A stretch of 39,166 bases of DNA from a virus, in the IMG/VR virus record IMGVR_UViG_3300025574_000003, positions 1 to 39,166 of that record; one strand, given 5' to 3'. The stretch's first letter is position 1; each line of letters begins with the position of its first letter. Below, in pieces: positions 33,689 to 38,334 of the stretch. The position numbers were made by a program, and so were the translations under genes. Below the pieces are notes generated by a model. That model was not told the origin of the DNA and made no database searches. It worked only from the letters and a program-made list of their open reading frames with translations.

Positions 33689-34300
33689 TCACCAATTCTC
33701 CAAGAGTTTATTAGTCTCTAAAATTTTTTGTTCTAAGTGATTGGCTTGCTTTTTGAAGATAATACGCAATGAATCAGGGGTAGATTGATCTTCTATTTTG
33801 GCGAGTATTTGATTTAAAAGTTGTTCGTCTGATGTTTCAGGTGGTGTCGGGACATTGTCGGGATGTTCAAGAGCGTTTTTTAAAACGCCATTTTCTTTCT
33901 TTTCTTTTAATTTACTTTCCTTTACTTTACTTATACCCGACACTGTCGGGATAGTATCGGGAGACTGTCGGGACATGGCTTGAATCTTCTTGGATGTATA
34001 CTCGTCTTTTCGCTTTAAAACCTTGATGTTTTGGTATTTATCGCCTGATTTAGTCATTAGGCCGATCTCTACGCAATAGTCTAAAACCTTTTGAATGGTT
34101 TCGGGCGCTTCATTGGCATCATCTGAGAAGTCTTCAAAGGTTTGTTCTAATTCACACATGATTTTAGGTGGATCAAGCTTTTCACCTATCATCTCGTTTG
34201 CCATAAAGTAAATGCCGTATCCCATGGCCGAAAACTTGCGGATTAGCTTCCTGACTCTTGGATCGTGACGAGCGTTGCAATCGTGGCCGATATATTTCAT
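33689..34300 (-). CDS. Lin1244/DUF4373-like replication protein (203 aa)
   Basis: The start MKYIGHDCNARHDPRVRKLI with GYGIYFMANEMI matches the Lin1244/Lin1753-like (DUF4373) N-terminal domain. Phage and prophage replication initiators of this type carry it, often as a winged helix. A lysine-rich linker (about residues 115-145) and a helical C-terminus (EQLLNQILAKIEDQS) follow. It is the only replication-type gene I recognise apart from the recombination set. It may open the origin and recruit the host replisome. Confidence 0.72.
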   Translation of the reverse strand: MKYIGHDCNARHDPRVRKLIRKFSAMGYGIYFMANEMIGEKLDPPKIMCELEQTFEDFSDDANEAPETIQKVLDYCVEIGLMTKSGDKYQNIKVLKRKDEYTSKKIQAMSRQSPDTIPTVSGISKVKESKLKEKKENGVLKNALEHPDNVPTPPETSDEQLLNQILAKIEDQSTPDSLRIIFKKQANHLEQKILETNKLLENW

Positions 34301-34494
34301 TGCAGGCCTTCTTTGTCCGAAGACACATATCTGGGTTGTTCTGGTAAATCTAAAACAATGCGCAAAGCTTCGCCCAATCCTTTAAGGTAACCAGTATAAG
34401 GGTGATCTATATTTTCTTTATTTGCTTCTTGCGCCCGAACAATAGCCCTATATCTAAATTTCACTTCTTTTTCGCTTAGCATGATTTTCCTCAC
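34297..34494 (-). CDS. Hypothetical protein (65 aa)
   Basis: The ATG at 34494 follows GTGAGGAAAATC. The product is helical (SEKEVKFRYRAIVRAQEANK, GLGEALRIVLDLPEQ). It overlaps the replication gene by ATGA and is first in the leftward early operon, a usual place for a regulator. No helix-turn-helix is evident. Confidence 0.6.
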   Translation of the reverse strand: MRKIMLSEKEVKFRYRAIVRAQEANKENIDHPYTGYLKGLGEALRIVLDLPEQPRYVSSDKEGLQ

Positions 34495-34563
34495 GAAGAA
34501 AAATAGGGACTCGTGAGGTTAAGCGTGATCTATCTACCTGGCGGCGATAGCAGGCCCTCACGA
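34489..34563. promoter_or_regulatory. Three CCTCACGA repeats in divergent control region
   Basis: CCTCACGA occurs at 34489-34496 and 34556-34563 and in inverse form (TCGTGAGG) at 34511-34518. The flanks extend the match (TCGTGAGGTT and AACCTCGTGAGG). The first copy includes the ribosome site of the 34494 gene. They lie between divergent early transcripts, so repressor or RNA-binding sites are possible. Confidence 0.5.
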
Positions 34564-34775
34564 GGTTCCTAGGCTTTTCAGCCCAAAGTCTTTTACCATT
34601 TTGCCCTGGATATTGTCAAACGCTATTTTAGGGGCATTGTATGATTATTTTTTGCATTCTTTAGGCCTTCATTTGGACGATCTCGCCTTGGGTGGTATGA
34701 GTGCATGGGGTGATTTAGCGCCTCAATTAAATGCAAAGAATGAAATAATAAATAAAATAATGTTTGAAATAGTTA

Positions 34776-34804
34776 TTGACATAATCCGATTGTTATATTA
34801 TGAT
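34776..34804 (+). promoter_or_regulatory. Near-consensus rightward early promoter
   Basis: TTGACA (34776-34781) and TATGAT (34799-34804) are separated by exactly 17 bp: six of six and five of six consensus bases. Transcription should start near 34811, about 55 bases before the first gene. It would drive the rightward early operon, including the hammerhead ribozyme. It lies inside an apparent open frame, which argues that frame is not a gene. Confidence 0.85.
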
Positions 34805-34866
34805 TGTGTTCGTAGGGCAGTTCACTTAGCGAGTCTGGCGCTTAATCCAGCAGAAGGGCAGAACTA

Positions 34867-35031
34867 ATGAAAAAGATTCTATTAAAGAAAAACTCTCAAG
34901 GGTGGATGGCTTTCATCCCTGAATTTGGCGAATGGCTTCCTTGCCCGTTTACAACTCTTGCCCCTGTTGAAATGGTTATCGATAAAATGGCCCCGCTGAA
35001 TCCTGGTTATGAATTCGAGGTGATTTCATGA
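34867..35031 (+). CDS. First early gene, hypothetical (54 aa)
   Basis: The ATG at 34867 follows AGAAGGGCAGAACTA. The product is MKKILLKKNSQGWMAFIPEF followed by GEWLPCPFTTLAP, a small alpha/beta protein. Its TGA overlaps the next ATG (ATGA). As the first gene behind the strong promoter it is probably highly expressed. Function unknown. Confidence 0.7.
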   Translation: MKKILLKKNSQGWMAFIPEFGEWLPCPFTTLAPVEMVIDKMAPLNPGYEFEVIS

Positions 35032-35264
35032 AAGCAATCACCGTGAAGTACATTCCGCAAACCGCCACTAAACCGGCTCGCTTAAAAGCCTTTGATAACG
35101 CTGGAAATCAACAAACCTATAGCCGTGACACTTGGATGAATTTGGACGGTCAAGAGCTTCACCAAAAAGCCGCTGAGAGCTTGCGTGATTTGATGAATTG
35201 GAAAGGTGAGTTGGTTGGCGGTGGAATCAAGAACGGATATGTTTTTTGCTTTAAGCATCAATAA
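35028..35264 (+). CDS. Hypothetical protein upstream of ribozyme (78 aa)
   Basis: The ATG overlaps the previous stop. The product has a beta N-terminus (ITVKYIPQTATKPARLKAFD) and a helical middle (LHQKAAESLRDLMNW), ending GYVFCFKHQ. Similar small proteins occur in other phages. The TAA (35262-35264) is directly followed by the hammerhead ribozyme, so self-cleavage would leave this gene with the first one on a short two-gene mRNA. Confidence 0.7.
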   Translation: MKAITVKYIPQTATKPARLKAFDNAGNQQTYSRDTWMNLDGQELHQKAAESLRDLMNWKGELVGGGIKNGYVFCFKHQ

Positions 35265-35314
35265 GATCGAAACGCCTTAGGGCGTCTTGGCGTAATGCGC
35301 CAACTGACGAGATC
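35265..35314 (+). ncRNA. Type II hammerhead self-cleaving ribozyme
   Basis: All hammerhead elements are present in order. Stem II 5' strand GATC (35265-35268) is followed by GAAA (35269-35272) and stem III CGCC-TTAG-GGCG (35273-35284). U16.1 and C17 of the GTC triplet are at 35285-35286. Stem I TTGGCG-TAATG-CGCCAA spans 35287-35303, core CTGACGA is at 35304-35310, and stem II 3' strand GATC at 35311-35314. G10.1-C11.1 and A15.1-U16.1 pairs are correct. Stem II is the open helix, so it is type II. Cleavage should occur between 35286 and 35287. It starts immediately after a stop codon and lies behind a strong early promoter. Confidence 0.92.
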
Positions 35315-35340
35315 AGAAAATTTAAACATGGGGGGAAGCC

Positions 35341-35457
35341 ATGAGAGAGTTAGAAACGATTTTCAATCCGTATGACGGTCAAGATTGGGAAGATTTTCAA
35401 GCGCATGAAATTGCGACCGACAAAGCAATGGAGTACGTTTTAGCCTATCGCCTGTAG
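35341..35457 (+). CDS. Small acidic protein after ribozyme (38 aa)
   Basis: The ATG at 35341 follows ATGGGGGGAAGCC, a strong ribosome site, 27 bases after the ribozyme. The product is MRELETIFNPYDGQDWEDFQ and 18 more residues. After self-cleavage it would be the first gene of the downstream mRNA, whose 5' end is capped by the stem I hairpin. Function unknown. Confidence 0.6.
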   Translation: MRELETIFNPYDGQDWEDFQAHEIATDKAMEYVLAYRL

Positions 35458-35471
35458 TAGTTGACGCTCTG

Positions 35472-35529
35472 CCGAAGAGGGATACCCCTACCTGGTTTCA
35501 ATACCAAGGGACTCCCCTCTCGGTAGGGG
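35472..35529 (+). ncRNA. Structured RNA candidate with competing stems
   Basis: CCCCTACC (35485-35492) pairs perfectly with GGTAGGGG (35522-35529), enclosing the hairpin TGGT-TTCAAT-ACCA. AGAGGG (35476-35481) pairs with CCCTCT (35515-35520), and CCG (35472-35474) extends this to CGG (35521-35523) with one bulged A. The two stems cross, so they form either a pseudoknot or a two-state switch. It lies in a 128-base gap with no gene. I cannot match it to a known riboswitch or ribozyme. Confidence 0.55.
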
Positions 35530-35585
35530 ATAAAATAACCAGATACTTAATGGTAGTTTAGACAACGTTACGAAAGAGGAAACTA

Positions 35586-35768
35586 ATGGAACTCGAAATG
35601 GAAATGGAACAAAAGATTTCGGACGATATGCCGACAATGACGGACAAGCAGATTTGTAAGATTCACAATAAGACTTCTTGGAGAAGCGATCTTTGGAATC
35701 AAGCGGTAGGCGAAATGCGGAAGCGCGGTATCCGCCCGGGAGATGTTCAAGGGATTCTAGAAGCCTAA
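35586..35768 (+). CDS. Hypothetical protein (60 aa)
   Basis: The ATG at 35586 follows AAAGAGGAAACTA. A possible stem, TAGTTT (35554-35559) with AAACTA next to the start, could sequester this ribosome site. The product has an acidic M/E-rich start and helical rest (DKQICKIHNKTSWRSDLWNQ). Function unknown. Confidence 0.6.
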   Translation: MELEMEMEQKISDDMPTMTDKQICKIHNKTSWRSDLWNQAVGEMRKRGIRPGDVQGILEA

Positions 35769-35802
35769 CCAAGTAGTTTAATCACCACTACGGAGGCTTT
35801 AA

Positions 35803-36072
35803 GTGGAAACACTAAACAACGCTTGGAAAGTACACACGCCAAACCTACTGAAAGAAATTGCGCAAAATACAAACCAACCAATTCTTTCAAAACCGATAAA
35901 TATTTTTGGTAGGTTGTTGGCCGAAGTGGGAAAAGAGGCGATTCGGATAAATGATGCGAAGCTCAATGCCTTGATGTGCCGATTGACGATTTATAGCATG
36001 GCCGACCCGGAAAGCCCGGACTACGACAAAAAGGCGCTAGATCAAGTTTATAAGTTGGCTCAAAAAGGTTGA
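35803..36072 (+). CDS. Hypothetical helical protein (89 aa)
   Basis: The GTG at 35803 follows TACGGAGGCTTTAA. The product is all-helical in appearance (NNAWKVHTPNLLKEIAQNTN, LLAEVGKEAIRINDAKLNAL) and ends LDQVYKLAQKG. No family recognised. Confidence 0.65.
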   Translation: METLNNAWKVHTPNLLKEIAQNTNQPILSKPINIFGRLLAEVGKEAIRINDAKLNALMCRLTIYSMADPESPDYDKKALDQVYKLAQKG

Positions 36073-36102
36073 TACAACACGCATCATTAAAAAGGAACTG
36101 TT

Positions 36103-36612
36103 ATGAAATTTAAAGATCAACTGGAAAAGTTAGACGCTTGCGGAACTGCTATTGATTGGGTTGGTAAACGTGACGCTAAAGCCGCTTGGGCTAAATGTAA
36201 AAATGGAAATTGGATGCTATGGTTGATAAATAAAACCACCAAGAAAGTCACTTTGGCTCAGCGCAAAAAGTTAGTGTTGTGCGCCTGTGAGATCGCCGAA
36301 ATGGTTTTGAAATACGTCCCGAAAAGCGAAATGCAACCAGCGGAAGCCATCCGGTTAGCCCAGGCATGGGCCAACGGCGAAATGGTCACCTTGAAACAGG
36401 TTGACGATGCCGCCAATGCCGCCTATGCCGCCTATGCCGCCAATGCCGCCTATACCGCCTATGCCGCCTATGCCGCCGCCTATGCCGCCTATGCCGCCTA
36501 TGCCGCCGCCAATGCCGCCAATGCCGCCGCCAATGCCGCCAATGCCGCCTATGCCGCCTATGCCGATATAGTCAGAAAGTATTTTCCGAAGCCGCCGAAG
36601 ATTGGCAAATAG
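36103..36612 (+). CDS. Imm5-like family protein with Ala/Tyr/Asn repeats (169 aa)
   Basis: The N-terminal 95 residues (CGTAIDWVGKRDAKAAWAKC, GNWMLWLI, ACEIAEMVLKYVPKSEMQP, AIRLAQAWANGE) match the family often annotated putative immunity protein (Imm5-like) in phages and bacteria. It is followed by 52 codons of GCC-rich repeats encoding units such as AAYAAYAANA, then a basic tail. The family typically has such alanine repeats. Biological role in phages is not established. Confidence 0.7.
   Translation: MKFKDQLEKLDACGTAIDWVGKRDAKAAWAKCKNGNWMLWLINKTTKKVTLAQRKKLVLCACEIAEMVLKYVPKSEMQPAEAIRLAQAWANGEMVTLKQVDDAANAAYAAYAANAAYTAYAAYAAAYAAYAAYAAANAANAAANAANAAYAAYADIVRKYFPKPPKIGK
36409..36564 (+). repeat. 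GCCTAT/GCCAAT hexamer repeat tract in coding frame
   Basis: 156 bp made of GCC GCC TAT and GCC GCC AAT units, coding for Ala with Tyr or Asn every third residue. It is a slippage-prone tract, and length changes of 3n would keep the frame. The opposite strand reads as a run of GI/GGI codons, which is a shadow. Confidence 0.95.
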
Positions 36613-37866: not shown

Positions 37867-38334
37867 ATGTACAGACGATACGCCTCAAAGACTTCGGTGA
37901 GTGTGGAGCGGTCAATTGGTGAAATCCAAAAGACGCTAAACCGTCATGGATGTGCGGAGTTCATGTCCGGCACCAAGGACGATAAGTCAATTATTCAGTT
38001 TCAAATGAACGAGCGCCGGATTCGGTTTGTTCTCCCACTCCCGCCGAAAGCCGATTACTCAACCAACAAACGAGGCCGAGAAAAACCGGTTGATAAAATT
38101 TTAAAGGATTGGGAGCAAGCTTGCCGTCAACGCTTCCGGGCTTTGGCGCTGGCAGTTAAGGCAAAGCTTGAGGCGGTGGAAGCTGGGATCACAACCTTTG
38201 AAGAGGAATTCATGGCCCACATCGTTCTTCCGTCCGGCCACACGGTAGGGGCTTGGATGAGCCCACAGATCGAACAAGCTTACCAAAGCAAAAAAATGCC
38301 GCCGATGTTGCCGGGTGCAGTCGAAAAAGGTTGA
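37867..38334 (+). CDS. Widespread phage hypothetical protein (155 aa)
   Basis: The ATG at 37867 follows TTTAGAGGGAGGGTTGA. The N-terminus TSVSVERSIGEIQKTLNRHG, then IRFVLPLPPK, then QRFRALALAVKAKLEAVEAG, matches a family seen in very many phages, usually 140-160 residues and of unknown function. Its place in early operons near recombination genes is typical. An adjacent short gene starts 5 bp after it ends. Confidence 0.75.
   Translation: MYRRYASKTSVSVERSIGEIQKTLNRHGCAEFMSGTKDDKSIIQFQMNERRIRFVLPLPPKADYSTNKRGREKPVDKILKDWEQACRQRFRALALAVKAKLEAVEAGITTFEEEFMAHIVLPSGHTVGAWMSPQIEQAYQSKKMPPMLPGAVEKG

What the first reader, a model, noticed from the sequence alone, without database searches (positions are those of the whole stretch)
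35265..35314. Complete type II hammerhead ribozyme right after an early-gene stop codon
Seen directly: GATC, GAAA, a CGCC/GGCG stem, GTC, a six-pair TTGGCG/CGCCAA stem, CTGACGA, GATC, in the order of a hammerhead with open stem II, and every invariant core base is present. Known: hammerheads occur in bacteria and phages, where type II forms are one of the architectures. Inferred: cleavage at 35286/35287 would separate the first two early genes from the rest of the early mRNA. That would leave a stem III hairpin at the 3' end of one piece and a stem I hairpin at the 5' end of the other, which could set stability or stoichiometry of early expression.
Basis: partly seen in the sequence, partly recalled or inferred. 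Interest (0 to 1): 0.92.

Follow-up and report, generated by a model that had tools for sequence, protein, structure and literature searches.

The report
Phage gene-boundary hammerhead with anti-core hairpin
Right after a phage gene's stop codon lies a small RNA that very probably cuts its own messenger RNA between two genes; it belongs to a compact hammerhead form, common in environmental phages but missed by the standard RNA library, that often carries a conserved hairpin able to lock up its catalytic strand, as would happen once the cut is made.

Summary
Window 35265-35314 (+) is a complete type II hammerhead ribozyme with an intact core, directly after the TAA of a 78-aa gene. Rfam misses it: no hit at gathering, none at E up to 10. 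The reason is that Rfam's Hammerhead_II model describes the pseudoknotted type II form. The window belongs to a compact form: 6-bp stem I with a 5-nt loop, 4-bp open stem II, no pseudoknot. Pattern scans of IMG/VR returned hundreds of relatives, with compensatory changes in all three stems. Two unconstrained bases are near-invariant: U at loop I position 1, and A just 5' of stem II (526 of 527 each in five stem II classes). These match the A-U Hoogsteen contact of the sTRSV hammerhead crystal, circularly permuted. About 85% of elements abut the upstream stop codon (control 5%); in about 40% the stop codon itself supplies the conserved A, as in the window. New here: about a third of compact elements carry a tail that pairs with the catalytic strand (CUGAN with N'UCAG, 123 of 123 paired, T-A or C-G switching), near-isoenergetic with the ribozyme fold. 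The likely role is gene-boundary cleavage followed by refolding that traps the 3' product. No cleavage was tested.

The parts
34776..34804 (+). sigma70-like promoter TTGACA-17-TATGAT (11 of 12), likely start of the transcript that carries the ribozyme
   Evidence: the only promoter-like site found in 34200-36200; shuffles give 3.5 such sites on average, so a consensus match only
34867..35031 (+). 54-aa ORF, first gene of the transcript
   Evidence: no PHROG or Pfam match
35028..35264 (+). 78-aa ORF (weak match to phrog_3199, unknown function); its TAA stop is 35262-35264
35264..35264 (+). A just 5' of stem II, equivalent to the last base of the stem II tetraloop in sTRSV-type hammerheads; also the last base of the stop codon
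   Evidence: 526 of 527 relatives in five stem II classes have A here although no pattern required it; A-U Hoogsteen contact described in PMC2553840
35265..35268 (+). stem II, 5' strand (GATC)
   Evidence: covarying pairs
35269..35272 (+). GAAA: G12 A13 A14 A15.1
   Evidence: invariant in alignment A1
35273..35285 (+). stem III hairpin CGCC-TTAG-GGCG plus U16.1 (pairs with A15.1 at 35272)
   Evidence: stem III varies compensatorily in scans that left it free
35286..35286 (+). C17; predicted self-cleavage between 35286 and 35287
   Evidence: position in the hammerhead consensus
35287..35303 (+). stem I, 6 bp TTGGCG/CGCCAA, loop UAAUG whose first U (35293) is the tertiary-contact U
   Evidence: all 6 pairs show double-sided changes; U1 in 526 of 527
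35304..35310 (+). CUGACGA core strand (C3 U4 G5 A6 N7 G8 A9)
   Evidence: invariant except N7
35311..35314 (+). stem II, 3' strand (GATC)
35304..35316 (+). alternative anti-core hairpin CUGA 35304-35307 / UCAG 35313-35316, exclusive with the catalytic core and stem II
   Evidence: window P about 0.9 in the 3' product and 0.33 intact; HHR fold -17.0 against alternative -16.7 kcal/mol; family-level covariation
35341..35457 (+). 38-aa ORF, first gene of the 3' product; SD-like GGGGGGAAG just upstream

Best explanation
It is a self-cleaving type II hammerhead ribozyme of a compact, pseudoknot-free form used as intercistronic punctuation in a phage operon. The transcript starts upstream of the 54-aa and 78-aa genes. 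The ribozyme folds as soon as the 3' GAUC strand is out, held by the contact between U35293 in loop I and A35264 of the stop codon. It cleaves at 35286/35287. The upstream mRNA then ends in the stem III hairpin with a 2',3'-cyclic phosphate; the downstream mRNA starts with a 5'-OH stem I hairpin. Once cleavage frees the core strand, CUGA pairs with the UCAG tail, which traps the product, disfavours re-ligation and leaves two tandem hairpins ahead of the next ribosome-binding site. Shown by sequence comparison: the architecture, family, stem covariation, stop-codon placement, and the anti-core hairpin as a selected feature of part of the family (at its weak, 4-bp end in this window). Inferred: activity in the phage, product trapping, and an effect on mRNA stability or gene dosage.
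For: Complete core and stems. 69 relatives: 100% of cells paired, 11 of 15 pairs changed on both sides, 267 double-changed cells, no shuffle reaches this, slid controls collapse. Loci from genome contigs that were not in the model score 50-73 bits. Contact bases U1 and A(-1) near-invariant without being required by the pattern, matching the crystal contact. About 85% within -4..+10 nt of an upstream stop against 5% at random positions; next start codon median 25 nt downstream. Anti-core hairpin: N'UCAG directly after stem II in 39 of 374 elements against about 0.5 per other offset; N7-N' is T-A 73, C-G 49, T-G 1, nothing else (Fisher 8e-34; nonredundant 3e-8); in GGUC-ended stems the tail AG occurs in 72% against 10% in CC-ended stems, with N7=C when AG is present and T when absent (p 1.7e-4); absent from the pseudoknot class (1%). 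HHR and alternative folds near-isoenergetic before cleavage; the alternative dominates in the 3' product. Precedent: phage type II hammerheads flanking genes, cleaving in vitro and in E. coli, and a halovirus variant 13 nt upstream of an early helicase gene (PMC3088659).
Against: No cleavage assay and no RNA-end data. The window's anti-core hairpin is only 4 bp with a C-A mismatch at N7, so at this locus it could be incidental. Within the GATC class N7 does not track the AG tail (p = 1). For longer versions the nearest-neighbour model favours the hairpin even before cleavage, which would suit an off-switch as well as a product trap. The sTRSV hammerhead already favours the cleaved state (PMC2553840), so a trap may not be needed. 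No close relative of this phage covering the site was found to show conservation at this locus.
Confidence: 0.68

Rival explanations
1. The anti-core hairpin is an off-switch or timer: it competes with ribozyme folding before cleavage, so only part of the transcripts is cut, and the share depends on transcription speed or on ribosomes (a terminating ribosome covers stem II and III; an initiating 30S covers the tail).
For: For the 6-bp versions the hairpin is 1.6-2.5 kcal/mol more stable than the secondary structure of the ribozyme and dominates the intact ensemble. The stop codon abuts the ribozyme and even supplies its contact A. Start codons lie about 25 nt downstream.
Against: The energy model ignores the tertiary contact that favours the ribozyme; in GAUC and GGUC classes the two folds are balanced to within about 0.5 kcal/mol. 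No ligand-binding domain is present.
Confidence: 0.33
2. An ordinary type II hammerhead, fully explained by the known phage family; the CUGA/UCAG hairpin in this window is a by-product of GAUC followed by AG and does nothing here.
For: GAUC already contains UC, so AG completes UCAG; the window lacks the N7 pair; type II hammerheads at phage gene boundaries are known (PMC3088659).
Against: AG after UC-ended stems is 43-72% against 10% after CC-ended stems, so UCAG is favoured as such in the family.
Confidence: 0.3
3. The palindrome formed by core strand and tail is a DNA operator for a phage regulator, and its symmetry has nothing to do with RNA folding.
For: CTGAN-n3/4-N'TCAG is an inverted repeat, as operators are.
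Against: It occurs only fused to the hammerhead core, in unrelated phages, with two different registers and spacers (GAG or ANNC); the other class of type II hammerheads lacks it.
Confidence: 0.04
4. A chance look-alike or dead ribozyme.
For: No Rfam match.
Against: Zero in shuffles, 76.8 bits against the family model (the window was in the training set), family covariation, conserved contact bases.
Confidence: 0.03

Closest known systems
Rfam RF02276 Hammerhead_II / type II hammerheads of Perreault et al. 2011 (PMC3088659)
   Same: Order GAAA - stem III - UH - stem I - CUGANGA with stem II open; phage gene boundaries; several per genome
   Different: That consensus has a pseudoknot of loop I with the 3' tail; here loop I is 5 nt, there is no pseudoknot, and the tail is free to pair with the core strand. 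The window is not matched by the model; relatives mostly score below its cut-off
sTRSV hammerhead (type III, crystal structure PMC2553840)
   Same: 6-bp stem I followed by U, 4-bp stem II with an A as last base of its loop, A-U Hoogsteen contact
   Different: In sTRSV stem II is closed by a tetraloop; here stem II is the open end, so the A lies upstream of the ribozyme, often inside the stop codon
HHphage of haloviruses HF1/HF2 (PMC3088659)
   Same: Hammerhead in the 5' leader of an early phage gene; a mapped 5' RNA end within three nt of the cleavage site
   Different: Different core variant and host; no anti-core hairpin reported in the text read

Membership tests
Hammerhead ribozyme | Core C3 U4 G5 A6 N7 G8 A9, G12 A13 A14, A15.1-U16.1 and H17 | tested here: met
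Hammerhead ribozyme | Three stems round the core, supported by covariation | tested here: met
   stem III also
Hammerhead ribozyme | Self-cleavage 3' of position 17 | not testable with these tools
   needs an RNA assay
Type II architecture | Stems I and III closed, stem II open | tested here: met
Rfam RF02276 Hammerhead_II | Score at or above 37 bits | tested here: not met
   no match in the window; 0 of 19 records of compact elements over the cut-off; one compact element elsewhere (L055) scored 38.6
Rfam RF02276 Hammerhead_II | Pseudoknot of loop I with the tail | tested here: not met
   5-nt loop; compact class allows at most about 3 pairs in nearly all cases against 4 or more in most of the other class
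sTRSV-type tertiary contact | U next to residue 1.6 and A as last base before the stem II strand | tested here: met
   both bases present and near-invariant; the contact itself not tested

The most novel reading that the evidence does not exclude
A widespread, unlisted subclass of phage hammerheads carries a selected anti-core hairpin, so that each element is a bistable RNA: cleavage (or a ribosome on the flanking genes) flips it from ribozyme to a double-hairpin 5' cap, with the stop codon of the upstream gene serving as part of the ribozyme's tertiary contact.
Probability: 0.45. Interest if true: 0.8.

Novelty: new variant of a known kind. Interest (0 to 1): 0.62.

Why it matters
What phage hammerheads do has been open since 2011. 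A conserved hairpin that competes with the catalytic strand, and a stop codon that doubles as a tertiary-contact base, give two concrete tests of function: product trapping or re-ligation, and coupling of cleavage to translation. A compact covariance model would also recover many hammerheads that Rfam-based annotation misses.

Tried and rejected
Rfam at gathering and at E up to 10 for the window: no hammerhead. Relatives through the 78-aa gene: none. Relatives through the 155-aa gene 37867-38334: 23 loci, none with a hammerhead, but the near-identical one (L392) starts downstream of the site and the rest are distant phages, so this says nothing on conservation at the locus. Whole-region megablast to named phages: none. 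Minus-strand terminator-like hits at 35270-35343 are the ribozyme hairpins read backwards. An HDV-like ribozyme in the structured gap 35465-35530 was considered: no Rfam match, and the strand before P2' is too short; rejected. Function through one particular downstream gene: 20 downstream proteins are diverse or unknown.

Full report
Observation. The sequence is as described, base for base. All core bases are there, stem I is 6 bp with loop UAAUG, stem II is 4 bp and open, stem III is closed, and cleavage would fall at 35286/35287. A stem-constrained pattern occurs once in the window and never in shuffles; a structural scanner finds no second type II hammerhead in the window and none in 100 shuffles. 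The fold is the three-way junction.

Why Rfam is silent. cmscan gives nothing at gathering or at E up to 10. They fall in two classes by length of the stem I segment. One (20-24 nt) has a loop that can pair with the tail in four or more pairs; Rfam Hammerhead_II hits loci of this class, and it is the form described by Perreault et al. 2011. The other has exactly 17 nt (6 bp and a 5-nt loop), 4-bp stem II and no pseudoknot. The window is of this compact class. In 19 records with compact elements RF02276 never passes its cut-off, whereas a model of the compact class (R1) scores them strongly. R1 was trained with the window in it; loci from genome contigs that were not in the training set score 50-73 bits.

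Evidence that it is a selected RNA. In 69 diverse compact elements all 15 pairs are 100% paired; 11 change on both sides, 267 cells do so, no shuffle of 500 reaches these values and slid structures collapse. Stem III was fixed by that pattern, but scans with stem III free show the same: pair types GC, CG, AT, TA with almost no mismatches. Two bases not demanded by any of the free scans are near-invariant: loop I position 1 is U and the base before stem II is A, 526 of 527 each over five stem II classes. In the sTRSV crystal a conserved A-U Hoogsteen pair joins the last A of the stem II tetraloop to the U next to residue 1.6. With stem II opened instead of stem III, that A becomes the base just before the ribozyme. 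So the compact class looks like the sTRSV contact in circular permutation. That is an inference from position and conservation, not a structure.

Placement. Of 97 compact elements 87% start within -4..+10 nt of the stop codon of an ORF of at least 40 codons, against 5% of random positions, and the next start codon lies a median 25 nt downstream. In a larger set of 432 nonredundant elements it is 85%, and in 170 (about 40%) the stop codon itself supplies the conserved A (TAG overlapping stem II by one base, or TAA abutting it). In the window TAA 35262-35264 abuts GATC and its last A is that base. Downstream genes are diverse, so the element seems to mark boundaries and not one gene. Copies per genome reach five in the records searched.

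The anti-core hairpin. In many compact elements the bases right after stem II complement the catalytic strand CUGAN. In 374 elements found without regard to the tail, N'UCAG sits directly after stem II in 39, against about 0.5 at other offsets. A scan that fixed UCAG but left N7 and N' free gave 123 unique elements: T-A 73, C-G 49, T-G 1, nothing else (Fisher 8e-34; 3e-8 after removing similar ones), and both pair types occur within several stem II types. A second register uses UC of stem II itself: after GGUC strands the tail is AG in 72% and after GAUC in 43%, against 10% after CC-ended strands, and in the GGUC class N7 is C when AG is present and T when it is not. The pseudoknot class has no such helix. 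The nearest-neighbour energy of the ribozyme fold and of the alternative is about equal in GAUC and GGUC classes (window -17.0 against -16.7 kcal/mol), and favours the hairpin by 1.6-2.5 in others. In the 3' cleavage product the hairpin forms with probability 0.9 or more in hairpin-bearing elements.

Mechanism. Best supported: boundary cleavage of a polycistronic phage mRNA, giving a 3' end closed by stem III and a 5'-OH end closed by stem I. Where the anti-core hairpin exists, cleavage should flip the core strand into it, so the product is trapped. The main rival is that the hairpin lowers or times cleavage before it happens. The window holds the weak form (4 bp, C-A at N7), so here the trap is only plausible.

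Known and new. Phage type II hammerheads at gene boundaries, with cleavage in vitro and in E. coli, are known. In the papers found here I saw no account of the compact permuted contact as a class, of the stop-codon overlap, or of the anti-core hairpin. The library searched is partial and the alignments of the 2011 paper could not be read, so some compact elements may already be listed there.

Noticed in passing
L168, L605, L607 (Streptomyces phages R4, Paedore, Puginator): Eight to twelve Rfam Hammerhead_II ribozymes each in the early operon region fetched, many of them in gaps between neighbouring genes; cultured test systems for ribozyme-punctuated operons.
   Followed up: partly
L171, L604 (Streptomyces phages Yara, Wentworth): Type II hammerheads with an 18-19 nt stem I segment; R1 scores them, Rfam does not report them.
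   Followed up: partly
window 35465-35530: Strongly structured gap (long hairpin) in the same transcript about 150 nt downstream of the ribozyme, no Rfam match.
   Followed up: partly
window 36103-36612: 169-aa ORF with an Ala-Ala-Tyr/Asn repeat from a GCC-GCC-TAT/AAT DNA repeat; sub-threshold Pfam match to Imm5_like.
   Followed up: no
L024 1673-1725 (-): Glutamine riboswitch aptamer on a viral contig that also carries a compact hammerhead.
   Followed up: no
L119 5868 and 7243: Two hammerhead-like motifs with very short stem I in a 158-kb contig, preceded by the same 28-nt sequence; looks like a repeated element.
   Followed up: no
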